Source: Ceratodon purpureus
Taxonomy: Eukaryota; Streptophyta; Bryopsida; Pseudoditrichales; Ditrichaceae
Assembly: GCA_014871385.1 (NCBI GenBank)
Contig: CM026433.1
Coordinates: 4,297,573 to 4,361,572, forward strand
Reading direction: 5' to 3'
DNA length: 64,000 nucleotides
Each line of letters begins with the position of its first letter. Position 1 is the first letter of the stretch. The translations under genes were made by a program, and so were the position numbers. The notes beneath the pieces were generated by a model. The model worked only from the letters and a program-made list of their open reading frames with translations. It did not search any database and was not told where the DNA came from. This document shows positions 6,135 to 35,233 of this stretch, one piece after another.

Positions 6135-6194
6135 GACATGAGCGATGAGCCGTGAGCCATGTGCCGTGAGCGAGTTTCCATGAGCCGTGAGCGG
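6135..6194 (+). repeat. Left terminal inverted repeat, heptamer-built
   Basis: Starts GACATGAGCGATGAGC and continues as degenerate 7-bp units of the form CRTGAGC (CATGAGC, GATGAGC, CGTGAGC, CATGTGC), then a short spacer and two more units. The first 10 bp exactly match the inverse of the right end. Confidence 0.75.
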
Positions 6195-6701
6195 ATGATT
6201 TACTTTTTTTAGTAAATGTATTTCATTCATCAATGACAATGAACTCATCCAAAATGAATGAACAATTTGGAAATCCACAGAGCAAACATCAAATAAAATG
6301 ATGATTAGTATTCCCAGGTGTCAAATTAAATCATTAGGAATGGAAAGCTTAGGTTCAGAAAAACGGCTCATAAAACAGACGAAGAAATTTGCAAGCCATG
6401 GCCAGGTAAATTAGGTTTAAACACGGATATGGCTTTTGCAAGCCATGGCAAAAAACCACGCGGTATGCATGTCACATTTTTGCACATTCATGTGGCCTAT
6501 CTCGACAGAGGTCAGTGTTTCTTAGATCGCTCATTGTTATGTACTCAGTCAGACACATCGAAGTGCAACACAGTGGGTAAGGGTTTCCGGAAATTATTTG
6601 TAGTGAAGTGAGCTGATATTGTGAATTCTAAGTGCGGTACTTATGTTAACTTTATGGGTAGACAATGTAGCACATTGCATGTGTATATTTGATCTGTACA
6701 G
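6195..6701. other. Left subterminal non-coding DNA
   Basis: AT-rich sequence with no supported gene. ATGGCTTTTGCAAGCC at 6429 followed by a GTATGCATG donor-like site could be a tiny first exon, but its phase does not fit the next exon-like stretch at 6702. Confidence 0.3.
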
Positions 6702-6900
6702 CTATACGGAGCAGGAGCGACGGTATACCGTAACATCTGACACCGATAGACATGAAGGAGGCTTTCTGGTTGACCTGCTGAAGAATTGGAGCAAGAACGA
6801 TGCACCGGAGTATGAGTTCTCGGTGTACTTTGGTCGGAGCGTGATTGAAATCAAAGCAGAGCGGAAGATTTCTGAGAAAGGGGGACAAGAAGCGCGCACC
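6702..6900 (+). CDS. Putative internal exon of an unrecognised gene (partial)
   Basis: Open in one frame, with an acceptor (ATCTGTACAG|CTATACGG) and a strong donor (CGCACC|GTAAGT). The predicted peptide is well mixed and charged, with parts reading YTVTSDTDRHEGGF and EYEFSVYFGRSVIEIKAERK. It ends in phase 0. No connecting exon in phase was found, and the family is not recognised. It may be a fragment of a degraded cargo gene or part of a longer transcript leading to the RING gene. Confidence 0.35.
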
Positions 6901-8018
6901 GTAAGTGTTCCTGTCAAGTATGCATCCAGTTTGTAGCATGCTTCAAACTTCAGTATGTTCGGTACTATGTTTTGATGTACATTTTCATGTTCACTTATTG
7001 ATTCAAGATTTTTGGGTATGGTATTGCAATTTGGGGAAAGTGGTACCTAATGGTCTGGCAAAATTACTCTAAGCTTTAAGAATGAATATGTTTAAAGGAC
7101 GTGCTGCGGCATGTTCGACAATAATCAGAATTCCACAGCAGTGCAGATGGAGGTGGGTAATTTCATGAATATATCTCTGTACTTATTTGACTACCATTCG
7201 CATGTCTTATATCAGCAATGGACGTCAGCATTAGCTGCCAGAAACTTTCTGAAACATATGTCCTGAAACCATACTCTCTAATGCACAGATAGATAGAAAT
7301 TCAGCTGGAAAAGAGAAAGTAGTACCAGTCCTGTAATTAGATCGATCAGAGACATTACTGGCGGCAAGGGCTCAAGTTGTAAAACCTTCATTCATTGATG
7401 ACCACTGATTCCTCCGTGTGGACTCTTTGTGCAGAAATTAAACCGGAAATCCATAACTGACTGGCCCTCCCTTGGAACTTGACACAACACATCTGCATAT
7501 CTGTAAGCCTCTTTTACTGCCCTCGAAAACATATTTTCTACTTCTAAAACGCAATACATGCTGACTGATTATCAGAATATGCTAGTCTAGTATATGAGAG
7601 ATTAATCTGAAAGCTCTAGTGTATAATATAACACGCATCATTGATTATGTTGAAAATATCACATGTACCTCATCAAATCCTCTTAAATTTGCTAAATTGA
7701 CTGAGTGGAAGCTCGCAATTCATACAGTAAACATCAATAAGTCTAGAAAGGTGATAAAAGCAAAGCTATGACAAAAACTCACATAAAGATGGCCTTCTGT
7801 TGCAGGAATCTTGAGAACACTTCGCTCACTGAAAATATTACAGAGTTCAAGAACATCTGGTTTCAAGTGACCTGTAAGTTCCACAACTCGAATTAGACAG
7901 GCGATTCAGTTTATGTCTAGGCATGACATGAATGAAACAGATTGACAAGAGAATGGCAGGAACTGAAGACCGAATGATGTTGTTCTATGCAGGAGGGCAA
8001 CAAGAGTGATTGAGCGTG
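6901..8018 (+). other. Non-coding DNA with a possible small exon, leader of the RING gene
   Basis: A 66-bp exon-like block at 7806-7871 has acceptor GTTGCAG and donor ACCT|GTAAGT, and codes for LENTSLTENITEFKNIW in one frame. A second acceptor (TCTATGCAG at 7992) lies 26 bp before the ATG at 8019 and probably starts the exon that carries the RING coding region. All three frames close between 7993 and 8019, so the preceding exons would be leader or a separate gene. Confidence 0.35.
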
Positions 8019-9364
8019 ATGGAGAGAAATAAACTAGAGAGAGGAAAGGAGGAATGGTTTGCATCAGAGGTTTGTTTGCCTAATTGGGGGCTGGATCCCT
8101 CAAGAGACTGCAACCATGTAGAGAATTCAGAGTTGGAGAGGATGTTTGGTGAGCGAAGGAAGAAGATAGGATATTTCTATCCAAATGCAAAGTCTACTAG
8201 AGTTCAAAAGCGGATAGAGGAATTAGTTCCTGCCATTTACCAATGTTCTAAGATGCCAAAGAATCAGAGTATCTCAGAGTCCTTGGCTAGGGCAATTGTT
8301 TCAGAGGTGTGTCACGGCCACCCTATGAATTGGGCACAGTATGCTGAGGAGAGGTGGAGGGCGAAAAAAAGTGGGAAGAAGAAGGTCAGTCCAGTCATAA
8401 AGTACGAAGCTCAAGAAACCAAGGATTCGTACTATGGATTGGTGAAGAGAAGATTTGAGACAGAGTTGACAAAAACAGAACTTCAGCACAGTGAGGTGGA
8501 GGCTGATTATAGCGACCGTCATATATTCATTAGTACCCTGATGTCCAAGCCAAAAAATCGAGCATGTGGAGCCGAAGCAGAGAAAATCAAGACAAGTATT
8601 TCAAGGCTTCGTGGGAGATTGGAAGCTTGTGAGGACGTTCTCAAAGACCTTGGGGACACTGAACAGAATGTGGAAGAAAGGAAGAGAGAGGAAGACCGCA
8701 TAGTTGTTCTGAAATACAGGATAAAGAAGAAAGAGATTGCCTTGGTTGACACAAAAGGTCAGATAACTGAAGCTATGGAGGAGCTAAAGAGACTTCAATC
8801 AGTCATGGAGGACCTTCAGCTTAAATCAGATCGACTAAAAGAAAAACTGGAGAAGATAGCTAAGTTACTTCCTATCCCTTTGACTTTGCATACAAGTCAT
8901 CATATTCAAGGAGATCCAACTGGTCGAAGTAGTTTCCAGATAAAAGTCAATCACTGTGCTCTGTGTGAATCGAGCTTCACACAAATGGATATACTTGTAG
9001 CACCATGCCACTGCACATACCACCTCTGGTGTGTTGTGATGCAAAGCATGCTGGCAGATGAATGTGCCAACAGTGAATGTAAGGAGACATTCACCGAGAG
9101 TTGGAAAAAAAGTCTCGGCCTCGACAAATTACCAGGTAAGATAACAATAAACCATATCTTTTTGATTGAACTCAAATCGTATTGGTAGAGATGTTAAGTT
9201 CTCTTTGACTTTCTTTATTTGATTCTAACTCAACCTGATGCTGTGAATTAATAGATTATGATCTTGACAAGCCACCAAGACAAGTTAATCAGCCAAGTCA
9301 AAAGCGTAAGCATACAAACTCAGACATTGGTGGGGTGAACTTCTCGAAGAAAAAGAAGAAATAA
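8019..9364 (+). CDS. Coiled-coil RING-like zinc-finger protein of the element
   Basis: Two exons, 8019-9135 and 9255-9364, joined in phase (CCA G|GTAAGA ... TTAATAG|AT), giving 408 aa. Residues ~1-130 are basic and mixed. Residues ~190-290 are a long charged coiled coil (for example EERKREEDRIVVLKYRIKKK). Residues ~311-365 form a RING-like Cys/His cluster: CALC, then PCHCTYHLWC, then CANSEC. The C-terminus ends in a basic tract (QKRKHTNSD ... FSKKKKK) typical of a nuclear localisation signal. The open frame extends nine bases upstream but only from a TTG; the ATG at 8019 is the sensible start. A role as E3 ligase or DNA-bound partner of the transposase is inference. It is the leftmost well-supported gene of the element. 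Confidence 0.75.
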
Positions 9365-9679
9365 ACATTTACTGGATGAGCAAGGTACAAACTGGTAAGT
9401 ATAAAATCCGAACTGATTGAAAATATATTGTTTACTACTTTATGAACTGTTTACCATATTATAGTATAACATGTAATACTATCATGTGCAGGTTTGTAGC
9501 AAGATTAGATACTTGAATCAACGACTTCGAGTGTTCCTTGAAGGTGAATTCCAAAAGTATTTTAAAACGCAGATAAATGGTCTTGACGATCACGATAGTT
9601 CAAGTCTGTTTTTTAGAAACTCATTGTGGAATAGAAAATCTATTTTGAAAACTGATTTTCAATTGAGAGCTTCATAGTC

Positions 9680-10841
9680 GTTCGGCACCGAATGTAGGTG
9701 TAGACGCTAGAATAACTGTTGCCTTACTCGGGCAATGCCGAACATTTGAACTCGTATAAAAATGCATGGGCAATGCCGAACATTTGAACTCGTATAAATA
9801 TGCATGTTTTCAATTACCGAGATATATTGTGCCATAAGTTCACATTGACATGAAGTATATATCACAATTGAAGTTAACAGATCAGAACTTTAGTTAACAC
9901 TAATAGTAACATTAATATGTAACACTAGTAGAAACATGTCCACTGTAATTGACTAACCAGAAACATTTCAAATAGAAGCGGATGACCCGTTCGGCACCGA
10001 ACCACTAGCATAACTCAAAAAGATATACACAAAAGCTGTTTGTAAAAGGCACCCAGCTGTTTGTAAAAGGCACCCAGCTGATTGACATATTCAAAAATCG
10101 AATTCACATTTGATCCCTGGTTGCTACACTGGCCAGGAGCACCCTCGTTCATTTCTTTCGGCATTGTACACGGTTCAGCAGCATAACCAAGGTTTGATGG
10201 CCACTGCCATGCCAACATATGCATATCTGCTGCTGGAAAGTGGGAAAAAAAAGTGTTGTCAAATTGCCCATATTGAAGCTGCTGCAAGTGGGGCGGCAAG
10301 TGATTCTCCGTGAAGGTACACCACGAGGGGAAGTTATAACCTACTGGATCCGATTACATTAAAAGTGAGATTTTACTCAAGGCAGAGAGCTGATTTTGCA
10401 AGTTCGTTGCCGAACGAGCTATGTAGGGTTGATTTTGCTGAATGGCTGTGTTGCGGTATTTGTATAATTTCAAGTGGAGAATGGGCACAAGAGATATTGC
10501 ACTACAGATCTGAGTTGAACTTCTGAATTCTTTTGGGGATCTAGTTCTGACAGCTACTTACTAATCTAGAATACAGACAGTTTTCTTCTTGGAATTAGGA
10601 ACCACTTCAATTTACAACATTGAAGGGGTTCTATCAGGTGGCCACTTGTCGTTCTGTAGCGAACGACACCATCGTCCCCAATTTGACTGCCATATAAGTG
10701 AGAGAAATAAAATTGGGCTATACACCCTGTTCTGTACAGAATGCCTACGAAGGCACCAATTTCTAAAGAAAATAAATTATACAGATTTTCATTGACATCG
10801 TAGATTTAATTAAGTCTGAGGGATGGCGTTCGTGCCGAACG
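9680..10841. repeat. Palindrome cluster 1 (six 14-bp dyads)
   Basis: Sites at 9680 (GTTCGGCACCGAAT), 9989 (GTTCGGCACCGAAC), 10402 (GTTCGTTGCCGAAC), 10651 (GTTCTGTAGCGAAC), 10729 (GTTCTGTACAGAAT) and 10828 (one base shorter, GTTCGTGCCGAAC). All lie 3' of the RING gene in DNA without a supported gene. Confidence 0.85.
9730..9805. repeat. 38-bp direct repeat, two units
   Basis: The unit starting GGGCAATGCCGAACATTTGA occurs at 9730 and again at 9768 with one difference. It contains the half-site GCCGAAC. Confidence 0.85.
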
Positions 10842-12548
10842 GCTTGACAAGTCCCTAATTTATAGTCCCATATAAAGTTTATTTTCAGAAGAAAAAAAAA
10901 TCCAATAATTTCCATATCAGTATTCTCCATATTTAAGTTAGTAAATGGTATAAGGTATGTTCCATATAATATTAGAGAAGAATCTTAAATTATTACATGA
11001 ACACATGTTCATGTTTATAACACATGAATAAAGATATACTATTAAATATAATATCATAATATCATATCAAAATATTATCTTCAAAATCATATACTTAAAT
11101 AATTGTGACAAAGTCATACATATATATCTAAAGCCTACTGTTGGTATGGACTACTTAAGCAAAAAACATATCATATAGCGATGTATGTTTGATAATTATT
11201 CTCTGATAATCATATAAAAATACTATATATAGATAGAAAATATGAATTAGTAAAAGACACATATAAACTTAGCAACTTAAATAATTTGAAAATATACTTA
11301 TTATCTTTTTTATTTAAAAATATTAATAGCATCTACATCATAAAAAAACAAATGTTTTCTTATTATAGTGGAATTCAAAATTATATAAAAAAATATTTAA
11401 AAAAATATCTTTATGGATTTATATATTTCTTTAGAGATTGGAAAGGATGCTGTAAACTAAAGAGACAACTGCAATGTAATTTAAAATAATAATTGCTCAT
11501 TAGTTATTTGTGACTGAATTTTGTTTAAATATATATATATATATATTTATATAATATGGTTTTCGTGTATATATTCATTTATACATATATATACATATAT
11601 ACAAATATATATATATAGAATTATATACATATATTTATTTATACATGAATGTTTAAAGATGTATATAATTATTTGTAATTATAGAATTTCATAAACATTT
11701 GCTTTTATATATGCTTCTTATAAATATTAGAAGATATAAAAAAATAAATATATATTACATTATATATAAATTAATAAACACATTTGAAATATATTTATTT
11801 ATACAATAATATAATATATATATGCATAATATTTTGAAATATTAATATTATATATAAAATTTTAAATATACAATTTAAAATTAGATAGAATTAGCTATTT
11901 ATTATATATATATATATATTATAAAATAATTAATTTTTTATTATTTTAAATATGTTTTTAAAAAATATACGTTTATATGTGTGTTTTTAAGTACTTTTAT
12001 ACATTTAAATAAAATCGTTTTAATAACTATAGTATAAATAAAGAATTTTATCATAATTATGGATAGATTATTATAAAATGATTCAAAATAAATATAAAGA
12101 ATACGAATATATTGATATAAATTGTTGCATTTATTGAAATAATATATTTTAGAGTCAACTAACATTATCAAATTAATAATATACATAAGGTTTAATTTGT
12201 ATTTATATTAAAAACCTGATGCATATATATTGTTTTGCATAATAATTGGTATAAAATATATTGACATTGCGTTTGATAGGAATTTATTATATTATGATTG
12301 AAAATTAAAACATCACAAAACTTCTTTTTGTGCAATCACAAGATTTAATATATTAATTTAGAATAGAGTATTTATGGTTAATTTTATACGTTACTTTGCA
12401 TAATCTTAACAATATTAATAAGATTTTTATGTTTTTGTAAATCTCATTAGATATTTTTGTAATAAGACCTTATATATAACGTAATCTAATCACCATCCAC
12501 AGCCAGGACTACAATCGGAAAATCCGAATCCTCCGGTTGGAAATGGGT

Positions 12549-12596
12549 GTTCTGTACAGAACATATGTGAAGTGTAATGTGTGTTCGGTACAGAAC
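12549..12596. repeat. Palindrome cluster 2 (two dyads)
   Basis: GTTCTGTACAGAAC at 12549 is a perfect palindrome. GTTCGGTACAGAAC at 12583 combines one arm of each class. They sit 34 bp apart in the GC-richer island within the AT-rich block. Confidence 0.85.
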
Positions 12597-13037
12597 ACCT
12601 GTTTCATATTTTTCATGAACACATACGTTAAATGATAGGCGTTCGTTCAGGAGGTCCAAAACATAATTGAATCAGTTAACGTAAGTATATAATACTGCAT
12701 ATATACATATGAGCCTTTTTATTAATGTGTATTTGAATTCTATGTTTCATTTATACATTTATGAATTATGATATATAAATGATTATTAATTCTTAGATCA
12801 ATAAGAATGGAAAATAATTCAGTTTTATTTCATAATTCATTTATTTTATTAAAAATAACATACATTTTACTTAAAAAATAGCATTGTGTTAAATAAAAAA
12901 CATTAAATCAAATTAATTACTTATACATATATTTAAGAAATCATTATTACTATACTATATTTTTAAATAGTATGTAATTAGTGAAAAAACATTTATAATT
13001 CTTCATTTAAAAGTGTATAAAATCATTGTTTTTAGAG

Positions 13038-13202
13038 ATGAAGTTTCATCTTGAATGTCAGGCAAATGTGGTGTACTACCACGATTGTTTCACTCGCATA
13101 AAGGCGCTTGATTTCATGAAGACAGAGTTTTCACAAAGCGTGGAGTTGAAGACTTGGAAAACGCTTTGTGGGAATTGTCATAAGCATAACGTCGAAGCAT
13201 AA
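13038..13202 (+). CDS. 54-codon Cys/His-rich ORF or last exon
   Basis: ATG at 13038, stop at 13200-13202. The peptide contains ECQ, YYHDCF and LCGNCHKH, a spacing that could hold zinc. It lies in a sharply GC-richer island in an AT-rich region, and a possible acceptor (GTTTTTAG) directly precedes the ATG, so it may be a terminal exon of a longer gene. No family is recognised. Confidence 0.4.
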   Translation: MKFHLECQANVVYYHDCFTRIKALDFMKTEFSQSVELKTWKTLCGNCHKHNVEA

Positions 13203-14381
13203 GGTCCTTAGCTATGAAGAATGCACGCTGACAATGGAATGCATGACTTAATACAATACATTGCAAGTCAAATATTTAGATTCTCTGACCTTCACTGTTG
13301 TTTTTTTAAACTTTTTTTAATATAAAAATGAAATGAACGCCATTAACTAATTGAAAAAGAATTTCAAAATGAAAATTACATCTCAGTAGAACTAGAGTGG
13401 TGTAGGATGTGGCTTTTAGCAGTGGCTGAGATGTGGAGGAAGAAAGCATCTGCACAATGGATAAGAGAAATATCTTCTTTCCATAGATAATACAGCTCAT
13501 TATGGGACTCATGTGCATTCACGAGCAAATACATACAGCATGGGCATTTGAAGCTGTTGCAGAACTCATTGACAATGTTCGAAAAGCCAAGGCCACATGG
13601 TGAACTTAAAGAGTTAAATATACACTTTTAGGAAATGCGATGAATTATAAGCTAAGTACATCATAATTACCTTTAATTCATAAAAACAATATATAAATAT
13701 ATACAAAAGTATAATATTCTTAAAATAAATTAAATATTTGGTATTATTAATAAAACTACTATATGTTAAATCTATTTTATAAAAATTCAACAAAAAAGTG
13801 TTTGCAAAATAACTTTGAAGGAGTATATAACATTTGCCTTTTTGATTAACAATTTTTCAAAATAGTGTTTTGCTTATTTCCAATTCGTTGCATTACTATT
13901 TGAATACAAAAATTAAAAATTTATAATACTCTTGAATATGAATAGTAATAAAGATTGAACCACAAGACTTCTCTTTGTGCAACTACAAGATTTGGTATAT
14001 GAATTTAAAATGAAATATTAAACCTATACATTAAAGACTTCTAAGATTTATGAATAGAAAAGGCAAACATTTATATTTCAAATTTAATATTAAAAAAAAT
14101 ATATATATGTATATCTATAATAATATAAATTAAACATTTATATGTATATCTATAATTTTGGATGAAAAATTATATTACAGTTATTGTGGTTTTTTATATA
14201 TTATTTAACTCAAAATTTTAATTATGTATATAAACATTGATAAATAACATGAGACATGTTTTTTAAAATATATGTATTATATAACTAATAGCATTAAATA
14301 CAATAATAATATTACATACTTTATTAACAAAATATATTAAAGTTATATACTTGTGTTTTGATGTTCAAAAACAATATATAA

Positions 14382-14433
<52 letters not shown>

Positions 14434-14750
14434 TGTTTAAATATCTAAATATATATTGATGTTTGCATATTTATTTATATTTCAATATAAATATCTAATT
14501 TGGTAAATTAGGAATGAAACTAATTTCTATATTTTTTTTATTTTCGAATTCATTATATTTTTAATAGAGTATAAATAATATTTGAATATTTAAATAAATA
14601 AATATATTTTTATATATTTATTTATACATATTTATAAATAATTATTAATATACATTTGATTCACATGAAGTAAATAGATGTCTCCAACTCTTTTATATAT
14701 ATTAGTAATAGTATTATTAAAAATCTAAAATTATTTATAAATTATTATGA

Positions 14751-14754
<4 letters not shown>

Positions 14755-14832
<78 letters not shown>
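14755..14832. repeat. (AT)n microsatellite
   Basis: A nearly uninterrupted AT dinucleotide run of about 75 bp. Similar runs occur at about 14384-14427 and 15455-15555. Confidence 0.9.
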
Positions 14833-14838
<6 letters not shown>

Positions 14839-15467
14839 TTATGTTAAATATTATTCTATATAAACATACGTAAATGTTAACATTTATGTCAAAAAATAAA
14901 TATATTACCTTGAATATATATCTAGTTTTTTTTTTAAAAATTGTGATAATACATGAATATATTCATATATATATATAAGGAGTATTTAAGATAATTACTT
15001 TTTATGTCAAAATAATAATTTTTAATTTTAATTCATATATATTATTATATTATATACTATTGTATTACTTATATATATATTCATATTAATAAATATGAAA
15101 TAGTTCTTTATAAAACAATTACTTATTCTTACATGTGTACACATATATTACATAAGGTATACTTAATTCTATATATTATAAATTATGAATATTTACATAT
15201 ATACACAAAGATTTATTTATATATTAATAAAGATATATAAAATAGATAATGAATAAATATGAGTACAATTATTTATATATATATATATTTTTAGATATAT
15301 AAATTCTGCTACCCATATGGATATATTTATAAGTAAATGAATCAATCAATATCTATATACACATATATATGTATACATATAGGATTTATATATATATATT
15401 TGTTTATATATAAGCTGATGAGTGTAAAATACTGTTATCTATTTACATATATATATATATATGTATA

Positions 15468-15554
<87 letters not shown>

Positions 15555-15966
15555 CTTCATATATTTTTATAAATAATTAAATATATGTAAATATATATTT
15601 ATATATGAAGACTAGTGTAAACATATATATTTTTATGTTCTTATTTTTCTACACATTGTTAATTTATATATTGTTTGCCTTTAAATTTTTATATATTTTT
15701 ATTTAATACATTTATTTATATTTATAGATATTTGTATATTTATAAATTTGAATCTATGGTTTTAATATAATAAGAACAATGTATTTATAGTTTTGGTCAT
15801 TTAGTTTAACAAGAGAAACTAATAAGACAGAAATGTAAATCGCTAATGTTACTATATATATATATCTAAATATATCAATGAATTTGCTATTAGATGATTA
15901 TGTTATTTAATATATTCATATGAATTAATAAATAATGTATAAATGTTCAATATTTTCATTATCCAT

Positions 15967-16076
15967 GCCTACCCGGTATGGTACCGGGATAATACCCTGT
16001 TGGTACCCGGTTTTGTACCATGATGGTACCCTATTGATACCCTGATGATACCCTAATGATACCCTGACGGTTTGTA
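15967..16076. repeat. GGTACC / GATACCCT minisatellite
   Basis: Successive degenerate units of about 12-18 bp around the cores GGTACC and GATACCCTGAT (for example TGATACCCTGATGATACCCT). It begins with the small palindrome CCCGGTATGGTACCGGG. It marks the right border of the AT-rich block. Confidence 0.75.
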
Positions 16077-23400: not shown

Positions 23401-25194
23401 TTACCTCGGGTAGGAAGTTCTTTCCATTTGCTGGATTGGCGATTGCAAGGAATTTGTTGAACGGAGCCGTAAGAGCTTTTCTCTTGGCTTCCATGGCACC
23501 GTTTATGGCAGCGTTCAGCCCATCTGCGGTCCGTCTTTTTCGAGAAGTCTCATCTTCATATCTCCTTTGCCCCTCATCTCCAGCTTCCATAATATCTTGC
23601 TGTACATACACAAAAAACCTAATTCGAATGACCTCAGAAACTCAATTGATCGAAACGAAAGTTACCAAATGGTCAAAGATAACTTACACTGTGTATGTAG
23701 TCAAGAAACTTGGCACGTGAGAGAGGATACCACGGTCTCTTCTCAAGAGGAATCTCCTGTTGCTTCTTCGCAGCTTGCAATTCTTCGGCCGTGAGTACAT
23801 CCTTGAATTTGTCGAGAGATAGCATGCCAACCTTTTGCATGCGATGCAGCGTATGCACAAGGTTCTGTTTGACGTGGCTGTTCTCATTGGATTTGTTTAT
23901 ATCATGCATAGCAGTGAGTACGTCGGTTACGCTCTCTGCAGTGCGGAGCACAATTGAACGAACCCTATAGTGCCACTCCAAGTCCTGCTTATGCGACTTC
24001 CGAATGAAGTCGTACCATGCCACCAATCGGTGGTTACCATCCCACACATAAAAGAACTTGTTAGAAAGCACGGCTAAATCAGGATCTGTCTTTAGGAAAT
24101 CCTCAAATTCTTGGTCTCTTATGCGCCAGTTCGGACTCCACTTTGCTCTTTCGACATCGGTAACCAACTTCTCCTGGCCCTCGAAGTTCGTTGTTGAGAC
24201 ATAGAATACCGCCGCACCATCGCGGTATCCATGTGAGAACTTTGCTTGCATCTTAGCAACGTCGTGCTCCAATGCAGGTCGCACTACTTGAAGCTTACGC
24301 ATTCTGCATAAAGGAATATGCATCATCGACTTGCCGGATGGAATCATCTCAAGCCTCTTCAGTATCTGGATGGAGTTGACACGTGTCTTGCGATGTGCTA
24401 CAATCATGTCGTATTCTTCTCTAGGGTCGAGGGCCGGTTCCCTTTCACCTTCTCCTGCCCCCGAATGGATATCATCTTCTTCGTCCTCTTGATCTTCCTG
24501 CTGTTCGGGAAAATCTGGCTCTTCCGGATCACTTTGACCACCCTCTTCTTGCTCATTGTCCGAATGATCCTCCATGCCTGAGCCATCACTCTGGTCATCA
24601 TCCTCTGAACAAAATCATCAACTCCTTCTAATCAGTACCAGTTTTATTTCTCATCATAGCAGATTATGTTACAAAATCGCACTGAGCTAGTCCATTCGGC
24701 ACAGAACGGTACATCCATGGTAATAGTATAATTAACCAAGGAAGCTCGAACCTGGGTTACGTAGGGGATGCTCCAATGTTTGCGTGGCGTCGTCATTACC
24801 ATCCTCGGATTGCAAATTTCCGGTAGGCGCACCTGAACATGATTAGAGTGCGGCATTGTTAGGTGTTGTTTTCTCATATCTTTAAATTACAGGCCACAAA
24901 AGATAAGAGTAATGTGATAAGATCATTATGATTCAAAACCGTACCTTCCCTCTGGGGTTCTGGTAGATCCTCGATGCGCAAGTAGTCAAACATTGCATGA
25001 TTATCATCGGGATTTGCTGTACACCACATTATTAAATTGATGAGTATTTTACCGTTCGTTACAGAACATGCAAAATTCAGAAATATTAAAAAGCAACGGT
25101 TGCAAGAAAACATAAGGCATACGGCATAAGCATTCATCCGACCTTGTGAGGGAGAGGGCACCCACTCCAGGTCGTTATCTCCTTCGGCTGCCAT
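17470..25194 (-). CDS. ParB/sulfiredoxin-like domain fused to DNA N6/N4-methyltransferase-like domain
   Basis: Ten exons assembled by eye: 25194-25143, 25016-24945, 24832-24752, 24604-23688, 23599-23405, 21582-21140, 21042-20358, 18895-18554, 18446-18023, 17735-17470. Every junction is GT-AG and in phase, and the sum is 3477 bp (1158 aa plus stop). Residues ~69-135 are very acidic. Residues ~175-320 resemble a ParB/Srx fold, with the signature YVWDGNHRLVAW (DGNHR at 257-261). The middle is novel, including a low-complexity basic linker. The C-terminal domain has the beta-group order: motif IV-like IIMDTPFD (residue ~840), then motif I-like VDLSASTGAS (~1020) and FFGIEED. ParB-methyltransferase combinations are known in bacteria and phages. 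Both catalytic motifs deviate (DTPF for DPPY, DLSAST for DPFxGS), so activity is uncertain. Large introns carry many 14-bp dyads. The transcript may continue, because GTAAGT overlaps the stop. Confidence 0.8.
19222..19955. repeat. Palindrome cluster 3, intron 18896-20357
   Basis: Dyads at 19222 and 19942 (both GTTCGGCACCGAAC), 19599 (GTTCGGCACCGATC) and a weaker one at 19278 (GTTCTCCATAGAAC). All lie in the 1.46-kb intron just before the methyltransferase motif-IV exon. Confidence 0.85.
21745..22813. repeat. 533-bp tandem duplication inside a methyltransferase intron
   Basis: The sequence from about 21745 to 22275 is repeated from about 22278 to 22813 with few changes. Shared landmarks include TGAATTTCGAAAATCATTCA, CCACTGCAGTAATTCATGAA and TCGAGTCTACTTCACAATTT. 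Each unit carries one GTTCGGCAACGAAC and one ATTCGGCACCGAAC, 166 bp apart. Confidence 0.85.
22980..23280. repeat. Dispersed repeat module, copy 1 (copy 2 at about 26985-27320)
   Basis: The module begins ATCAAAGGTGCTGA-ATCATTCGGC and includes CACATGTACTCATT, GAAATGAACATCAAC and CGCAGTATATACTCATA. Copy 2 lies about 4 kb away in the 5' leader intron of the same gene. Each copy has one dyad near its left end (23004 and 27011). Confidence 0.8.
24694..25067. repeat. Palindromes in two very short introns
   Basis: ATTCGGCACAGAAC at 24694 lies in the 147-bp intron 24605-24751. GTTCGTTACAGAAC at 25054 lies in the 126-bp intron 25017-25142. Placement in such small introns, but never in the flanking exons, fits exclusion from coding DNA. 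Confidence 0.8.
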
Positions 25195-25298: not shown

Positions 25299-26432
25299 GT
25301 TCGGTACAGAACGATACAATACGGCACACATTTATTGATCAATACGGCACATCATATGTCTTATTATGCAGAAGGTGCTAAATATAATCCAAATTCTTAC
25401 TCAAAATACCAATGTGACAAAGAAATTGAGTACAAAATGACTGATCTGTACCGAACAGCAAATACTTTACAATTTGAATACCATTCAAAGCAATTCCAGA
25501 GAAATACAATCGAACCTAAAGAGCCGTGAGAATCTATGATCTCTGGGTGTTCGTCAACGAACGGCATTTTTTATTTAATTTAAAACTGAATCATATAAAC
25601 CTTTTAAAACCTATAAAGTTCAAATTGGCCCTTATGTGCTTGATCTGTACAGAACAGCAAATACTTTACAATTTGAATACCATTCAAAGCAATTCCAGAG
25701 AAATACAATCGAACCTAAAGAGCCGTGAGAATCTATGATCTCTGGGTGTTCGTCAACGAACGGCATTTATTATTTAATTTAGAACTGAATCATATAAACC
25801 TTTTAAAACCTATAAAGTTCAAATTGGCCCTTATGTGCTTGATCTGTACAGAACAGCAAATACTTTACAATTTGAATACCATTCAAAGCAATTCCAGAGA
25901 AATACAATCGAACCTAAAGAGCCGTGAGAATCTATGATCTCTGGGTGTTCGTCAACGAACGGCATTTATTATTTAATTTAGAACTGAATCATATAAACCT
26001 TTTAAAACCTATAAAGTTCAAATTGGCCCTTATGTGCTTGATCTGTACAGAACAGCAAATACTTTACAATTTGAATACCATTCAAAGCAATTCCAGAGAA
26101 ATACAATCGAACCTAAAGAGCCGTGAGAATCTATGATCTCTGGGTGTTCGTCAACGAACGGCATTTATTATTTAATTTAGAACTGAATCATATAATCCTT
26201 GTAAAACCTATGAAGTTCAAATTGGCCCTCAAGTGCCTGATCTGTACCGAACAGCAAATACTTTACAATTTGAATACCATTCAAAGCAATTCCAGAGAAA
26301 TTGAACCTAAAGAGCCGTGAGAATCTATGATCTTATAATCCGTGTGTCCAATAATTTAAAAGTGAATCATATAATCCTTGTAAAACCTATGAAGTTCAAA
26401 TTGGCCCTCGAGTGCCTGATCTGTACCGAACA
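25299..26432. repeat. 199-bp tandem array with two dyads per unit
   Basis: Units recur at an exact 199-bp period, with anchors at 25549, 25748, 25947 and 26146; the last, partial unit is shortened. Each unit holds GTTCGTCAACGAAC (25549, 25748, 25947, 26146) and GATCTGTACAGAAC or GATCTGTACCGAAC (25443, 25642, 25841, 26040, 26239, 26418). A further dyad, GTTCGGTACAGAAC, precedes the array at 25299. Repeated 70-codon ORFs across the units simply follow the repeat. The array lies in the 5' leader intron just upstream of the methyltransferase start codon. Confidence 0.93.
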
Positions 26433-27672: not shown

Positions 27673-28130
27673 GGCAGGACCCAACCTAATCCAAAATCCA
27701 TTAACCTAACCACGGCATTACACAAAATCTATCACATAGGAAAACTAGTCACTTTCAATTTGAACATCCACCAGACCCACGTTTCAATACCAATCTCTTA
27801 CTGAATTTGTGTAACCCACCAGAACAATAACTATCGAACAATAACTATCGAACAAGTCCAATGATCCGACACATCGCACATGTCAATATCAAAGAACTGA
27901 AATGTGACTCAGAGAACGAGTCAATATCGTACTTAAGCTTTCTAAGGACTATCTAAGGCCTCCTCTTCCCCTCAGACTCAAGTACAGAAAACAAAATTTC
28001 AGATCCACACTCGAAATCATCTAGAGTTGAAGTACATACCCTTGACCCGAAAGCTCAAACACGCATCGAGCTGAATCCGAAAGAGGAGTGTCATGTCTGC
28101 CATAGGAAATATATACGAGTGTGTACTACT

Positions 28131-28701: not shown

Positions 28702-29325
28702 TCATCTGTCAATGTGATTTTCGAGATTGTCGTATTCTTCGTCTCCCATGGCATCATAAAACTCAGACCACAAATGGTATGCCTCTTCATTTGAATCCAC
28801 AACGATACCGTCAATCCTTGAATCAGTACTGCCACTTTCAGTTGGTGACTCAGTTTCATGACTGCCACGCACATTCTGAATAATTTCTCTAGTAGAGTGG
28901 ATGGAGTTTCTGTAACTTAGACTAAAAACTCCAACTGAAATAATTGCTATAACTACTAGAATTATAGCCTCGTGAGACATCTCCACGAAAACAGCAAAAT
29001 AAAATTTAGCCATAGCTTCTGTGATGAATCTGAATTGAAGACATAGAATGGGTGAATACCATGTTTGAATGGAATCATAGATCAAGGACATACACAAATA
29101 ATAGAATCAACATATGACAAAACATTCTCACAGTCTGATAAATAATTCGGTACTCACTTGTTTTGGAGTACCCGGAAATGACTGCACCCCGCGACGTCTA
29201 TAAGTACGTGGGTAGCACTCTAAGTCGCCCTCAAGTCTTGAGACAGGTTCTACGGTTGTCCTGGAGCTCTCCTCAATACCTTCTAACAATGCCTTCGCTC
29301 TTCTAACCGCTCTCGTCTCGACCAT
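28702..29325 (-). CDS. Small single-pass membrane protein of the element
   Basis: Two exons. Exon 1 is 29325-29158 (56 codons, start MVETRAVRRAKALLEG, donor CAA|GTGAGT). Exon 2 probably begins at 28980 (acceptor TTTTCGTGGAG|ATG) and ends with TGA at 28702, giving 148 aa in phase. Exon 1 is basic. Exon 2 opens with a hydrophobic helix (AIILVVIAIISVGVFSL), followed by a Ser/Glu/Asp-rich acidic tail. A TATA motif lies about 60 bp upstream. The exact acceptor is uncertain: a better-looking CAATTCAG acceptor at ~29040 breaks the frame. Exon 2 could also be a separate 92-aa protein. The function is unknown; membrane anchoring is inferred from the hydrophobic segment. Confidence 0.5.
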
Positions 29326-29381
29326 GTCTTAGAAACCACTAAAACGCTCATCTTGATATGATGAATCCAGAACCAGGTGCT

Positions 29382-29390
29382 CCTTATACA
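29382..29390 (-). promoter_or_regulatory. TATA box of the small membrane-protein gene
   Basis: TGTATAAGG on the minus strand, 57-65 bp upstream of the ATG at 29325. Confidence 0.5.
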
Positions 29391-30172
29391 TGGTGCCTTC
29401 TATGACTTAACACGCTTCATATTTAGCATGACATTTCTTCTCCAGCGGCTTAAGCTGATAATAACATTAGAATTTCAAATTAAAGTTTATTCCAGAAGCA
29501 CGATCTCCTAATTAGTACAAAAATAAACACGTAATGAATGACTCTTGGTTGTATGGCTAAACATAATTTGTTAAAGGCTCAAGCCGCCTTTAACACGTAA
29601 GGCAATTTGACTTACTTGAATTTTAAGAGATGCCGAGTTGTCTATATTTGTACGACACTTTCTGAAACAGAAGTTCATGCATCATGCGTTAAAACCTTTC
29701 CCGGAATATTATATCTATTTTCTTAATTTTACAAACTCCATGAATAGGAACCCGGTTTATTCGAATTTCTGTGCTTCCATGTTACTATTTGTGAATAATT
29801 AAAAGCCGTAATTTTTATACTATACTTGTATTTGCTATTTTACGATCCTTGGGCGAAATCGTCCGAGCCAGAGAATTAAGGTCTTCTGTACCATTCTGTG
29901 CAGAACGAGCACCTAGTGGCCACTTTGTCTCATGCCTTCTCAAATCAGAAATTGGCATTCTGTACAGAACGCCCCAGCAGCACATGATTTGTGAGAGTCA
30001 GTAGTTTCTTCTATATGTGGACGTCTAGCCGCCTTCTACCAACCTCCACCAATTTGGGATCTTGACAGTTCTTTCCATCTGGCATTCCCGTCTTGCAACT
30101 AAATAAGATTGAGATCCAAGGACTACATATTGAAGAGGACCATCTCCATAGTTCATCATTCTTAGTATCACA
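29391..30172. promoter_or_regulatory. Divergent promoter region with two dyads
   Basis: Non-coding DNA between the minus-strand membrane-protein gene and the plus-strand transposase gene. It contains ATTCTGTGCAGAAC at 29893 and ATTCTGTACAGAAC at 29957, about 200-280 bp upstream of the transposase ATG, and a TATA-like CTATATG near 30012. Placement at a likely promoter suits a regulatory role for the dyads, but that is inference. Confidence 0.45.
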
Positions 30173-33100
30173 ATGGCTTCTTCTGTTGTTTCTTTCCGTC
30201 TTGTACCTTCGTCTGTTCCCTTTGTACTCCATGTTGACGATGATGGATTTGTTGTTGTTGATGAGAGAATGCTGTGTCTTAGATTTCAATTGCAGGAGCG
30301 ATCATTGATTGTTGAGAAAGAAGATTTTGATAGTGCCGGATCTGTGGTTCGAACTGTGTATCAGAAGCCTGAACTTGTCAATGGCAGGACCATCTATAGA
30401 GTCTGTGCAGGTTCTTATACCATCATTGGTGGTTATCAGGCCTATGATAACTCACAGTCTTCCACTCTGACTCCTCGCTCCAATCTAGGTCGTACTAGGC
30501 GCACTCCACATTATTATAAATTGCCTTCAGTGAGTGAGACTCCTGAGAATTCAATTCATATTGTCAGTTCTGACGATGAAGAAGATGCATTTGGAGCCCC
30601 ATCTTCTTTTAAAGAGGGGAGAGTGAAGAAAGAGATTGCAGACAGTGAGAAGATTTGGACATCTTTCTCGTCGGATAGTATCAATGATGACTCCTTTGTG
30701 AGTGCAGATACAGTGTCTAAGTCACTTGTTTCCGAAACTCCATCATCGGACACAAGGGGATCAGATTCCAAGGACTGCGCCGGAAGTGAGACTCCTTCAA
30801 CTAACATGACTCACTCTGTTTCTACGGAGGGCGCTATTCCGAACACACCGTGTATTGGTCGAAGTCCTACAGTTCCAGGCGATGGTGGTGTCGATGGGAG
30901 TGGATTTCCTGCTACCCCGGAAACTGCCTCTACGGATTACACTAACAGTCTTTCTCCAGATTCGGAGAGATCCAACTCAGTGGCTGCGACACCTGTCACT
31001 GATTCTCATGGAAAGGGTTCCACTACTGCTGTGCTGTCAGAGACCTCACTTTCAGCTTTCGTGAGCATCTACGACTCCATTGTAGCACTTGGGAATCAAC
31101 GGATGTCAAAGAGTGAATTGAAGTCAGCGGATCTCTCTTCGTTTTCACATCATAAGGTGAAGTATCTTCCTGTCAAGTTTGATGGGAATGTAATTTTTGA
31201 ATTACCCAATTTACCTGCGGTCAAAGAAGGAGGAGCTGGTCTGTTGGATGGCATGGATCGTAGAAGTGACGGTCATGCTTGGACTGAGACAGCGACGACG
31301 AACATATCTGATCCTAAGTCTCAGTTATCATTCAAGTATGTGAAATGTCTTGGACATTTGCGTTGTTTGAATGACACTTGCCCACATATTGAACGGACTG
31401 GAGATTACAACGACCTTTACTGGGAAGGGTCGACTCCTGAGGTTCTTACGCCTGGCCCCAATCCAAAAATGCCTAAAAAGTGGTCTCTTGTTTGTCGTTT
31501 CTGCAAGACTGCTCCCTCTTGTTTGAAATTGTGCTCATGTAAGATGTATTATATTGTTTCAAAGAACCCTGCCATGTCGCGAGCCGCCGTTCATTTTGGC
31601 AACCATAATCATCCGGTTGCGACTGGGGAGTGTAGGGAGGCATTAGATTTGATTCGAGATGAAATCTTGAATCAGGTGTCCCGAACACCGAATGCCAAAG
31701 TTAGTGCCATAGGAATGGCAGTTGGTCGAGAGTTGCTTTTGAAGGGCCTTGTGGATGAGAGTCGTGAAGGAAAAAAGTTAACGGAGGATGAGCTGAAGCA
31801 GGTTTTTGATAAGTGGGCAAAGCTTAGCACTCCTAGTATTCGGAATATGATTGCCGAGGCTAGGAGTTTCTGTGGTCAAGGGGGATACATTGACAACATC
31901 TTGAAGTTGAAGAAGTCATCAACTTATGACTACATCCACGACAGCGTTTTCCCTGGACAAGGCAAAGACTTGGTTTACCTTTTTAAGATGTCAACTTGTG
32001 GAGTTGGAAGCGGAGTTGACCTCGTAAAGAGGATGCAACCAGGAGGGGACTTGGAGAACGAATGGGTGATGTTCGACCACGTCAAACGAGTGAAGGAGTG
32101 GTCGACACTAAGCATCCACGTTTATGATCCAGACTACCGCAAGGTTATGACCATCGCTGTTTGCGATATGCAGTCGGAATCTGCTGAAGCCCAGGAAAGG
32201 ATGTGGTTATCCATGTTGAATACGCTCGAGCAGCATGGCGTTACGAACGTCAATTTCAAAGGGTTTATGGCAGATTCTGCCCAAGCAAACTTCAATGCTG
32301 TTCGAACTATATTCGGAACCGGGAACCCGAAAGACAAGATGGAGGGGAAGGAACGAACGTGCCAGTTTCATTGGTCGATGGCACTCGACCGTCACACAAA
32401 ACAGCTTATCAAACCTGAACTCCAACAAGTTCATCTGAAGCTTTGTCATGAGTACCGGAAGTCAAGATCGAAGACAGACGCAGATGCAGCTTTGGCCTCC
32501 ATCAAGGCGTGGTGGTTTTCGTCAGGAGCAGTTGCCGAAGGATCGTTGAAGGAGCTATGTGACTGGATTCACTTTTGGCATTTCAGATTCCACCAGTGGG
32601 GATCTCACGTCTCTGAGGTAAATAACCATAATTCCTTTATTATTTAACTTATTGTTTCTGTTTTGTATGACCTAAAATATGATGTTCGTTAGAGAACGCC
32701 CATTTCTCTTGCCCTAATTTGACCCGTTCGGTACCGAACGACCTTTGTCCATGCCCTAATTTTCATGGTTCGGTACCGAACGCCCTTTGTCCTTGCCCTA
32801 ATTTTCATGGTTCTGTACCGAACGCCCTTTGTCCTTGCCCTAATTTTCGTCGTTCGGCACAGAACAACCTTCGTTTAAGACTTGAAATGAGTATTAGTTG
32901 AAATTTAACTTTTTGGTAAATTAGCTTGATGTTAGCAGTTCTTTACAGAATGCCTCATTTGCCCACGATTTAAAGAAGGAATAGTAATTTCCGAATATTA
33001 TTGACCATTTTTATATATTTTGACATTTAGCATGGTGTACGCTGATCTGTACAGAACGACTTAATCGGTGCTGATTTGAGTTTTGCTTCATCTAAAAAGT

Positions 33101-34799
33101 ATCATCTAAGTAGTTTATTTTGAAATCAATTGACTGGCTTTAGGCTGTTCTTTACAGAACTACATTGTCGAAGCTGATTGTCGTTAGTTTCTTAGAATGT
33201 GGATTTGTGCATTTCTGGGATTCTATAATATGCATTTGGTATCATGTACTAGAGGTTTGTTTACTTGCTTAATTCTAACAACGTTTTTGTTCCGATATTT
33301 TTTTCACGCAGTTTCTCTCTCTGGAAGAAGAAGCTTCCATGCCTACGTGTAATTTGTCGGAGACTGTGCACAACAAGTGGCTGCAAGCATCAGGCAACAA
33401 TATGGTTGACCTCTATGACGCCACGCTTGACGATTATTGCAGAGCGGCTTTGCAATCCACTCAATTCCACAACTTCTTGAAGGGGCATCTTGGAGGATCA
33501 GGGCCTTGTAGGAATGTGCTCAAGTTGCGTGCAGCGACGCGGAATGGTAACCCAGTGAAAATCGCTCAGATCGTTGGACAGATCTCTGTCGATGCTGGTT
33601 TAAATTCACGAGTTCCGCACCTGGAAGGCGAGAGTATTTTTGGGTCAGCCAAGCGTAAGTTAGACCTTCCTCCTGGCGATGACGATGACTCCCATCGCCA
33701 TGATCGGGTCAATTTCTCAATTCCAAAATTGGGAAAGAAGTCAACACCAGGGGCGACGCGTAGCTTGAAGCGATCTCCGAAGTCATCGGAACTGGAATCG
33801 GATATTGTGCCACCGGTTGTACCTGTGGTAACTCGAAACAACTTGCCAATCCGGGAGTCCCCTTGTACTAATCCTCTGGAATGGCGCATTGAACGGATTT
33901 CGCCTGAATGCAAGGATCAGTGTAGGGGTTACAATGGTGATGGCAAGAGGTGCAACGCTCGCATTGCCAAGTACAGGCGACCCACTGCTGCTCCAACTTT
34001 CACCGGAATTCAGAGGAAGTTCAAATCCAGTGACACGGAACAGAAGCAGTTCTGGTTTTGTCCCACTAACCTTCAGGCATGTGTGATGGGTGGGCGTTCT
34101 AAATACATCATGCATTATGCCGATGTTCCAGAGATCTGGCCAGTCATGTCAGGTACTAATTTGACTCAGATTGAGATAGACAGTTTTGAATCTGCTGGTT
34201 TTAAGCTAGATGAGGGATTTGTAAGCCACGTCGAAAAGACCCACGCTTCTACAGTTGAAGGTCATCCATCGACAATGCGTGGAGGACCCACAGTTGATCG
34301 CTTCAAATGGAGTGATCCAGTTTATTCTGAGACCGATGTCAACCATGTTCCAAGGCCCCCTAAGTCATCTGGGGATTATAGGCCCACTATGCGAGAGGGT
34401 AAGAAATTCAAGAATGTTGCGGAGCCATCAGCTGAGCATACTGCAAAATTTAATAGGTCCAAGACAATCGAGTGTTCTTTACTGAAGGTGAAAAAGGTCC
34501 CTCATCCAGGTTATGGATACGTTTTCACTGTCCACACTCCTGGATCTATCGCCAAGAACCAGCTATACGAAGTCACTATCGGTGATTTCCCATCATGCAC
34601 TTGTCTTGACTTCATCACAATGAAGACTAGTGCCCTCGGCCGTGGCCAGAAGAAATGGATTCTGTGCAAGCACCTTTATTTCTGCCTTCAGAAGTTCATG
34701 GATTGTACCGTGGAGGATAAGTTCATCCATCGCCCTGCTTGGACGTTCAATGAAGTCCGTATGTTGACAGATAAAGCTGATTGGTATGCTTACACTTAG
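30173..34799 (+). CDS. SWIM zinc-finger transposase (MULE/KDZ-like)
   Basis: Two exons, 30173-32617 and 33312-34799, joined in phase 0 (TCTGAG|GTAAAT ... TTCACGCAG|TTTCTC), giving 1310 aa. The start, ACAATGGCT, is in good context. Residues 1-~330 are Ser/Thr-rich and probably disordered. Residues ~388-490 form a Cys/His zinc domain (CLGHLRC, CPHIE, CRFCK, CSCK, NHNHPV) resembling FLYWCH/GCM-type DNA-binding modules. The core has RNase-H-fold-like segments, including VMTIAVCDMQSE, GFMADSAQANFNAV and ERTCQFHW with a C..H pair. The last ~70 residues carry a SWIM finger: CTC at ~1243, then CKH with Cys1267 and His1269. SWIM fingers and a C-x2-H pair are typical of MULE transposases, and KDZ-type elements are a possible alternative. 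It lies about 400 bp from the right inverted repeat. The 694-bp intron is packed with dyads. Confidence 0.8.
32684..33160. repeat. Palindrome cluster 6 with 42-bp triplet, transposase intron
   Basis: Eight dyads: 32684 (GTTCGTTAGAGAAC), 32726 and 32768 (GTTCGGTACCGAAC, perfect palindromes), 32810 (GTTCTGTACCGAAC), 32852 (GTTCGGCACAGAAC), 32938 (GTTCTTTACAGAAT), 33043 (GATCTGTACAGAAC) and 33147 (GTTCTTTACAGAAC). Sites 32726-32852 are spaced exactly 42 bp apart in repeated units containing CCTTTGTCCTTGCCCTAATT or a close variant. Confidence 0.92.
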
Positions 34800-35182
34800 G
34801 TTTCTCAGCTTTGGCGGTTTCCGTTAGATATATTAAGAAGGTTGCACTATTAAGCTATAGAATACTATAGCTCTGGATGTTGAAGTAGAGTACTTTGATT
34901 ACTTTCTTTTAGCATTCCAGTATATATCGGCAATTTGCATTGCTTGGTTTTGATTGGATTTGTGCCAATTAAATAAGCACCCTCTACTTGTTTCCTAATT
35001 TCATATTAATTGATCCGTTTACATTTTGTTCCTTACTCATTTTACTTAGTTTTACTTACGGTAGTGCTACATTTATCATCCATTTTCAGACGAAAGTCAC
35101 GAATGATAAATATTTCATTCGTTGTCATCGACAGTTTACATCCGGTAAAAAAACATGGAAATTACTAAAATAAGAAAAATTG
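34800..35182. other. Transposase 3' region and right subterminal DNA
   Basis: AT-rich, non-coding. No dyad of the 14-bp family was seen here. A weak inverted match to the left subterminal region is visible around TTTTAGTAA. Confidence 0.4.
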
Positions 35183-35233
35183 CATGAGCCATGAGCGCTC
35201 ATGGCTCATGGCTCATCGCTCACCGCTCATGTC
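35183..35233 (-). repeat. Right terminal inverted repeat, heptamer-built, with internal hairpin
   Basis: Reads CATGAGCCATGAGC, then turns into the inverse GCTCATGGCTCATGGCTCAT and ends CGCTCATGTC. The outer 10 bp are the exact inverse of the left end. The internal turn near 35196 makes a perfect foldback of about 28 bp. Confidence 0.75.

What the first reader, a model, noticed from the sequence alone, without database searches (positions are those of the whole stretch)
6135..35233. A 29-kb transposon carrying a ParB-methyltransferase, a RING protein, a membrane protein and a SWIM transposase
Seen directly: matching inverted ends, a transposase next to one end, spliced cargo genes, and insertion into a host segment with an intact copy nearby. 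From family knowledge: SWIM-finger transposases belong to MULE-like or KDZ-like elements, and ParB-methyltransferase fusions are typical of phages and bacteria. A plant element combining them is not something I know to be described. I infer that it may modify its own DNA or read modification state to regulate transposition.
Basis: partly seen in the sequence, partly recalled or inferred. Interest (0 to 1): 0.95.

Follow-up and report, generated by a model that had tools for sequence, protein, structure and literature searches.

The report
Giant moss transposon with private DNA-motif array
A 29-kb jumping gene in a moss carries, besides its transposase, a bacterial-type DNA methylase gene, and its non-coding DNA is studded with a 14-letter palindrome found almost nowhere else on the chromosome examined, as if it carried its own address labels for a protein it encodes, possibly to escape silencing.

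Summary
The window is from Ceratodon purpureus. The finding is a real DNA transposon, 6123-35245, with 31/38-bp inverted ends and 9-bp target duplication CGTGTCAAA. Of 40 related left ends listed, 30 pair with a right end; 15 of 15 pairs examined have 9-10 bp duplications. Six copies read carry the same genes. Of 54 listed transposase loci, 48 have the methylase gene's ParB-like exon within 30 kb, all divergent. Methylase dN/dS is 0-0.24, transposase 0.08-0.14.

New: the palindrome GTTCKKYACMGAAC fills introns and spacers: 44 sites at 11/12 or better, 1 outside the element. Genome-wide: 1,463 matches against 111 for the reversed pattern; 77 of the 78 places listed, on one chromosome, lie at five element loci. 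Two clades keep it, in unrelated 42- and 63-bp arrays; sites outlast their surroundings.

Best reading: MULE-like elements with self-recognition sites for an element-encoded protein, probably the methylase, working like Arabidopsis VANDAL/VANC anti-silencing. Binding and modification are inferred. "RING" and "ParB" are weak labels.

The parts
6114..6122 (+). left target-site duplication CGTGTCAAA
   Evidence: sequence; identical to 35246-35254
6123..6160 (+). left terminal inverted repeat (31 of 38 identical to the right end)
8019..9188 (+). RING-like ORF (389 aa; probably the main exon of a longer gene)
   Evidence: zf-RING_4 E = 0.05, below cut-off; present in all 7 other copies compared, with 0-5 stops; dN/dS 0.11-0.34
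9681..10741 (.). palindrome sites 3' of the RING-like ORF (5 sites)
10900..16000 (.). AT-rich stretch (19% G+C), no ORF of 150 aa or more; two palindrome sites at 12550 and 12584
17985..25194 (-). ParB-like/DNA methyltransferase gene; exons 25143-25194, 24945-25016, 24752-24832, 23688-24604 (ParB-like), 23405-23599, 21140-21582, 20358-21042, 18554-18895 and 17985-18446 (the last two: N6_N4_Mtase domain)
   Evidence: all introns GT-AG, one 1,082-aa frame; PF01555 30.7 bits, cut-off 26.7; P0010 81% identical
19222..19955 (.). palindrome sites in the MTase intron 18896-20357 (3 sites)
21740..22811 (.). ~535-bp tandem duplication in an MTase intron, holding palindromes; intron 21583-23404 has 6 sites
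25442..26333 (.). 199-bp x 4.5 tandem array, one strict palindrome in each full unit
   Evidence: 97% matches; sites
28705..29013 (-). 103-aa ORF with one hydrophobic stretch ('membrane protein')
   Evidence: open in the five other copies read; weak constraint
29161..29326 (-). conserved coding exon; corresponds to the N-terminus of the annotated homologue P0010 of the MTase protein
29894..29970 (.). palindrome pair between the divergent MTase and transposase genes
30173..34799 (+). transposase gene, exons 30173-32617 and 33312-34799 (1,310 aa); conserved candidate D, D, E, C..H and SWIM-type CxC..CxH residues
   Evidence: dN/dS 0.08-0.14
32684..33161 (.). 42-bp tandem array with palindromes plus further sites in the transposase intron (7 sites)
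35208..35245 (-). right terminal inverted repeat
35246..35254 (+). right target-site duplication CGTGTCAAA

Best explanation
6123-35245 is a copy, with both ends, of a giant multi-gene Mutator-like cut-and-paste DNA transposon of the moss Ceratodon purpureus (shown; about 0.97 for 'one transposable unit'). It travels with a transposase and, divergently, a ParB-like/N6-N4 DNA methyltransferase gene, plus a RING-like and a small membrane-type ORF. Its introns and spacers hold 30-44 copies (five copies of the element counted) of a 14-bp palindrome, GTTCKKYACMGAAC, that are recognition sites for a protein the element itself encodes (strong inference, about 0.8). The most likely reader is the ParB-like/MTase protein (inference, about 0.5): it would find element DNA through the palindromes and mark or shield it (N6-adenine or N4-cytosine methylation, or displacement of host silencing), keeping the family transcribable, as VANC does for Arabidopsis VANDAL MULEs (inference, about 0.4). 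Spreading sites through tandem repeats in non-coding DNA would give a long element many landing points without touching coding sequence.
For: Ends and duplications: 15 of 15 pairs examined. Pairs: 30 of 40 left ends within 100 kb, 16 at 24-32 kb. Gene linkage: the 20 best-matching (86-100%) and 28 of 34 further transposase loci have the ParB-like exon within 30 kb, all 48 divergent (from the capped lists). Constraint where dS is measurable: ParB exon 0.08-0.19, other MTase exons 0-0.24, transposase 0.08-0.14. Palindrome: 39 strict sites against 2.4 expected, 1 in 34.9 kb of flanks; 44 against 1 at 11/12 or better, 0 of 39 strict sites in 9,065 bases counted as coding; 30-33 at 11/12 or better in four diverged copies. 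Genome-wide 1,463 against 111 for the reversed pattern; 77 of 78 listed places at five element loci. Conservation of sites between copies: 93% against 82% (16 alignable of 39 sites) and 90% against 78% (17 of 39), reached by 0 of 5,000 random draws. Clade 2: a perfect site in 8 of 8 segments fetched beside four transposase genes, in a 63-64-bp array unlike clade 1's 42-bp array, and 8 perfect sites in the C9 copy. VANC precedent (MULE, short motifs in non-coding DNA, tandem repeats, hypomethylation): passages of PMC5735166.
Against: No binding, methylation or expression data. Which protein reads the palindrome cannot be told: transposase and MTase co-occur at nearly all listed loci; 3 of 51 ParB loci considered had no listed transposase within 30 kb and were not examined. 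The catalytic motif is off consensus (DTPF, DQPF or DQPY instead of DPPY; SASTG or AASTG instead of FxGxG), so the MTase could be inactive. No Pfam ParB match. The clade-2 copy at C12 (L063, 9 kb) has no perfect site, only 10 at 11/12 and 9 at 10/12. A more distant clade (about 42% identity) that also pairs the two genes has no site at 11/12 or better in 12.45 kb and a single strict-form match: either its protein reads something else or the link is not general. The palindrome could bind a host factor.
Confidence: 0.55

Rival explanations
1. The palindromes are internal binding sites of the transposase (its cysteine-rich or SWIM-type modules), used for synapsis of a very long element or for autoregulation; the MTase is a separate function.
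For: Sites sit beside and inside the transposase gene in both clades: intron and upstream spacer. The transposase has cysteine-rich modules.
Against: Sites at 11/12 or better run from 9680 to 33147 and are absent from the two ends, where transposases usually bind (recalled); the right end is mostly coding, so only the left end is a fair test. The largest clusters are in the MTase gene and its upstream region.
Confidence: 0.25
2. The palindrome binds a host transcription factor or chromatin protein; the element captured a host regulatory site and multiplied it for expression.
For: Sites near promoters and in introns are compatible with enhancers.
Against: A host factor should have sites in host genes: only 1 of 78 listed places on C1 lies outside element loci. 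The same motif is kept in two clades whose ParB-like exons are about 64% identical.
Confidence: 0.12
3. The palindrome is a by-product: it spread by tandem duplication and gene conversion within the element and does nothing.
For: Some sites lie in clear tandem repeats (199, 42, 63-64 and ~535 bp); copies exchange segments.
Against: Alignable sites, most of them outside arrays, are conserved above their surroundings; arrays in the two clades have different units but the same palindrome.
Confidence: 0.08
4. The MTase protein is a catalytically dead DNA-binding factor (a sequence-specific blocker of host methylation), not an enzyme.
For: Motif IV departs from consensus in the four sequences inspected (window, P0010, P0011, L063) and motif I in the first three.
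Against: The catalytic exons are among the most constrained parts (dN/dS 0-0.13 in exons 8 and 9 where measurable), and PF01555 matches above its cut-off.
Confidence: 0.3

Closest known systems
VANDAL elements and VANC anti-silencing proteins (Arabidopsis MULEs; PMC5735166, passages read; PMC10398659, listing and short synopsis seen)
   Same: MULE-type element with several genes; a short motif private to the family, in introns and spacers, multiplied in tandem repeats that differ between related families
   Different: Here a 14-bp palindrome instead of 8-9-bp motifs, about 29 kb, clear terminal repeats, a ParB-like/N6-N4 MTase; homology to VANC was not tested; binding and demethylation untested
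TET/JBP-carrying KDZ, hAT, EnSpm and other transposons of fungi (PMC12730594, outline and section 3.1 read)
   Same: DNA transposon carrying a DNA-modifying enzyme, read by that author as escape from silencing
   Different: Would add (if active) a bacterial-type N6/N4 methyl group rather than oxidise 5mC; different transposase; 9-10 bp duplications; element-private palindromes
Mutator-like elements in general (PMC6446971, passages read)
   Same: 9-10 bp duplications, terminal repeats, SWIM-type residues, extra ORFs
   Different: No match to any Pfam transposase model; 29 kb; MTase cargo
4mC-writing enzyme of bdelloid rotifers (PMC8885841, search listing with start of abstract only)
   Same: bacterial-type amino-methylation at work in a eukaryote
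   Different: There a mark of the host genome; here a gene of a mobile element in a plant, activity untested

Membership tests
Mutator-like (MULE) superfamily | target duplication of 8-11 bp | tested here: met
   9-10 bp in 15 of 15 pairs; range from a passage of PMC6446971
Mutator-like (MULE) superfamily | terminal inverted repeats | tested here: met
   31/38 bp, conserved across copies
Mutator-like (MULE) superfamily | MULE-type DDE transposase domain by profile | tested here: not met
   no Pfam transposase model at E<=1 for any of 10 family members; weak NCBIfam IS256 match E = 0.024
Mutator-like (MULE) superfamily | D, D, E, C..H residues and SWIM finger | tested here: inconclusive
   candidate residues conserved between sequences about 43% and 33% identical in the two exons; SWIM E = 0.6; assignment of the residues recalled
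KDZ (Kyakuja-Dileera-Zisupton) | 8-bp target duplication (as reported for Zisupton-1_PGr, PMC12730594) | tested here: not met
   9-10 bp
VANDAL/VANC anti-silencing system | short motif private to the family, in non-coding DNA and tandem repeats | tested here: met
VANDAL/VANC anti-silencing system | element protein binds the motif and causes hypomethylation | not testable with these tools
   needs DAP-seq/EMSA and methylomes
VANDAL/VANC anti-silencing system | encodes a VANC homologue | not tested
   no VANC sequence was compared
ParB/parS | ParB N-terminal domain by profile | tested here: not met
   no Pfam ParB match for the isolated region at E<=10; only the DGNHRLVAW motif, recalled
N6/N4 amino-methyltransferase (PF01555) | profile match above curated cut-off | tested here: met
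   30.7 bits, cut-off 26.7
N6/N4 amino-methyltransferase (PF01555) | catalytic (D/N/S)PP(Y/F/W) motif and FxGxG | tested here: inconclusive
   DTPF, DQPF or DQPY; SASTG or AASTG; consensus recalled

The most novel reading that the evidence does not exclude
A eukaryotic transposon family that labels itself: an element-encoded ParB-like/amino-methyltransferase recognises an element-private palindrome and writes 6mA or 4mC on element DNA, a bacterial-style self-mark that keeps plant 5mC silencing off; the N-terminal and catalytic halves are reshuffled between lineages while the address is conserved.
Probability: 0.3. Interest if true: 0.95.

Novelty: new variant of a known kind. Interest (0 to 1): 0.8.

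Why it matters
If the palindromes are read by the element's own protein, this would be another sequence-specific self-recognition system of a plant transposon, in a moss and with another kind of protein than VANC, so that self-addressing would look like a recurrent solution for long transposons. If the MTase is active, a plant transposon would carry a bacterial-type DNA mark, making the disputed role of 6mA or 4mC in plants directly testable at a known motif. The palindrome is short and defined, so one binding assay and one long-read methylome would decide it.

Tried and rejected
Structure prediction of the transposase (exon 1, 10 sequences) and of P0010 (2 sequences) gave mean pLDDT 40 and 30; no fold search was run on them. 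PDB sequence searches gave 7 hits at E 0.05 or worse for P0010, the best being DpnA, and none for the transposase profile. Phages: two weak hits in the MTase part, none for the ParB-like part. Scans of viral contigs and prokaryote contigs with two short peptide patterns each found no relative of the MTase protein, and in viral contigs none of the transposase. The protein database gave few relatives: 9 for transposase exon 1, 2 for the MTase protein, 4 for its catalytic part. KDZ membership was rejected on duplication length. A host origin of the palindrome is disfavoured. A different palindrome in the distant third clade was looked for in about 12 kb and not found. My working guess that some clade-2 transposases lacked the MTase came from a capped list (40 of 5,266 candidates scored) and was wrong. 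Dropped rows: dN/dS of the 'TM' exon and of 'Nex' were computed in a wrong frame; many comparisons are saturated and give no ratio. In one search the left ends of C3:22.77 and C4:7.52 were missed by my search; searches show them. One search's c1b stretch included about 1.3 kb of left flank; one search used the trimmed stretch for site counts but took its conservation test from the alignment. One search was given 51 of the 137 rows; the 86 left out are more distant or partial, and none lies within 30 kb of the six unlinked transposase loci.

Literature searches on which absence from print rests: in one library of open-licence papers; I did not find the Ceratodon genome paper itself in the listings seen.
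Full report
What it is. The window lies in a 362-Mb genome held as G000 (C13:4297573-4361572). A homologous protein is annotated as Ceratodon purpureus, a moss. Outside them lies a perfect 9-bp direct repeat, CGTGTCAAA. The two ends match at 31 of 38 positions.

It is a family. A 277-bp probe from the left end gave 40 places and a 266-bp probe from the right end 40 main places plus 33 short reverse matches; both lists are capped. Of the 40 left ends, 30 have a right end in the correct orientation within 100 kb, 16 of them at 24-32 kb; the wider pairs are assigned by closeness only. I read both junctions of 15 pairs: all 15 have a 9- or 10-bp direct repeat exactly at the ends. No empty allele could be seen: only one genome is held and the joined-flank query did not complete.

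The genes travel together. Five further copies were read over most of their length (C13:6.84 Mb, C1:16.28, C1:23.78, C4:10.02, C6:84.76). All carry the RING-like ORF, MTase exons, the 103-aa ORF, the exon 29161-29326 and transposase sequence, some with stops or gaps; in the C1:23.78 copy the transposase is interrupted by another element. Genome-wide, the 20 best-matching transposase loci (86-100%) and 28 of 34 further listed ones (mostly a second clade, 78-84% identical in the core) have the ParB-like exon within 30 kb, in all 48 cases divergent; the six without it are partial or carry stops (from; 55 of 2,936 and 129 of 3,055 candidates scored). Conversely, 3 of the 51 ParB loci given to that count had no listed transposase within 30 kb. 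A further 71 ParB-like exons are 37-43% identical to the clade-2 query (capped).

They are selected. Between the window copy and others, where synonymous change is not saturated, dN/dS is 0.08-0.19 for the ParB exon, 0-0.24 for the other MTase exons, 0.08-0.14 for the transposase and 0.11-0.34 for the RING-like ORF. The 103-aa ORF is less constrained (0.5-0.7; one comparison, on very few changes, 3.5). Of 19 full-length transposase exons of clade 1, the 14 outside contig C6 have no stop and the 5 on C6 have 2-4 each. C6 is 110 Mb and probably the sex chromosome (recalled). The halves of the MTase gene have different histories: the C1:16.28 copy matches the window at 92% in the ParB exon and 68-72% in the catalytic exons, the C4:10.02 copy the reverse (74% and 90-92%).

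The palindrome. Reading the introns by eye showed GTTCGGCACCGAAC again and again. In the strict form TTC[GT]N4[AC]GAA there are 39 sites in the element against a mean of 2.4 in 30 first-order Markov sequences (maximum 6), and 1 in 34,877 bp of flanks against 2.8. Scored over 12 positions, 44 sites have 11 or 12 matches inside and 1 outside; 0 of 39 strict sites lie in the 9,065 bp counted as coding. Spacing matters: GTTC-N6-GAAC occurs 26 times in the window, all inside the element; other spacers from 0 to 19 occur 0-4 times. The central dinucleotide reads CA on the plus strand at 23 of 39 sites, TA at 13, TG at 2, GC at 1, an orientation bias I cannot explain. Four diverged copies have 30-33 sites each at 11/12 or better.

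It is private to these elements. Genome-wide the pattern GTTCKKYACMGAAC gives 1,463 matches (both strands counted) against 111 for the reversed pattern. The tool lists the first 100 rows, all on C1 up to 23.78 Mb: 78 distinct places by my count. Of these, 77 lie at five loci: four with a listed transposase and ParB exon of clade 1 or 2 (0.82, 16.28, 19.93, 23.74 Mb; the ends of the 19.93 Mb element were not read, and its sites are assigned by closeness) and one within 8 kb downstream of a partial left end (15.54 Mb). One lies elsewhere (22.35 Mb). The other contigs were not listed.

It is maintained. Aligned copies keep the palindrome better than its surroundings: 93% against 82% (16 alignable of 39 sites, C13 copy) and 90% against 78% (17 of 39, C1 copy); 0 of 5,000 draws of random non-coding positions showed as large a difference. 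In clade 2 I fetched about 950 bp on each side of the first transposase exon at four loci, without having seen their letters: 8 of 8 segments held at least one perfect site, upstream and in the intron, the latter as a 63-64-bp array. Clade 1 has a 42-bp array in the same intron. The C9 copy of clade 2 has 8 perfect sites in 4.8 kb. Against this, the C12 copy (L063, 9 kb) has none, only 10 at 11/12 and 9 at 10/12, and 12.45 kb of the distant third clade shows none at 11/12 or better.

How it probably works. Shown: a mobile, repeatedly copied unit whose MTase and transposase are under purifying selection and which keeps many copies of a private palindrome in non-coding DNA. Inferred: an element-encoded protein binds it. 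A host factor would be expected to have sites elsewhere. Between the candidates, a protein with a DNA-methylase domain and a ParB-like region is the most natural reader of a dispersed palindrome, but the transposase cannot be excluded because the two genes almost always occur together. The role as anti-silencing is by analogy: in Arabidopsis VANDAL MULEs, VANC proteins bind short motifs in introns and spacers, spread by tandem repeats, and cause loss of methylation (passages of PMC5735166). CpG is somewhat less depleted in the element's non-coding part (observed/expected 0.83, 0.73 with palindromes masked) than in the right flank (0.65), which would fit low methylation but does not prove it.

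Novelty. No paper on such an element was seen in the searches listed under Tried and rejected; the library holds only open-licence papers. Known precedents are VANDAL/VANC and fungal TET/JBP transposons (PMC12730594: outline and section 3.1 read). The combination, and the palindrome, appear new. I call it a new variant of a known kind, with mechanism open.

Noticed in passing
L012:1-5950 (copy at C1:23.74-23.78 Mb): A distant relative of the element (transposase about 43% and 33% identical in its two exons) is inserted into the transposase exon of this copy, at the place corresponding to window 30634.
   Followed up: partly
G000 contig C6, five clade-1 copies: All five full-length transposase exons on the 110-Mb contig C6 carry stops; all 14 listed on other contigs are open. 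Fits decay on a non-recombining sex chromosome.
   Followed up: partly
window:17985-24604 against the C1:16.28 and C4:10.02 Mb copies: The ParB-like half and the catalytic half of the MTase gene have swapped partners between deep lineages, reminiscent of specificity shuffling.
   Followed up: partly
C13:13.50, C10:5.96, C4:12.33, C5:5.75, C13:4.03 Mb: Pairs of ends only 14-16 kb apart; at two of them the transposase has 7-8 stops and no ParB exon is listed near: probable non-autonomous derivatives.
   Followed up: no
window:9681-33160: The asymmetric centre of the palindrome is strongly oriented (CA 23, TG 2 on the plus strand); unexplained.
   Followed up: no
G000 genome-wide: 71 distant ParB-like exons (37-43% identical) in a capped list: a third, probably larger clade of this gene.
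   Followed up: no
C8:9599673-9600575, C6:17173769-17174563, C6:20241897-20242652: ParB-like exons of clade 1 or 2 without a listed transposase within 30 kb; the first is open over its length.
   Followed up: no
window:2166-4901: Single-frame acylamino-acid-releasing enzyme gene (APEH_N, Peptidase_S9) next to the insertion; an ordinary host gene.
   Followed up: no
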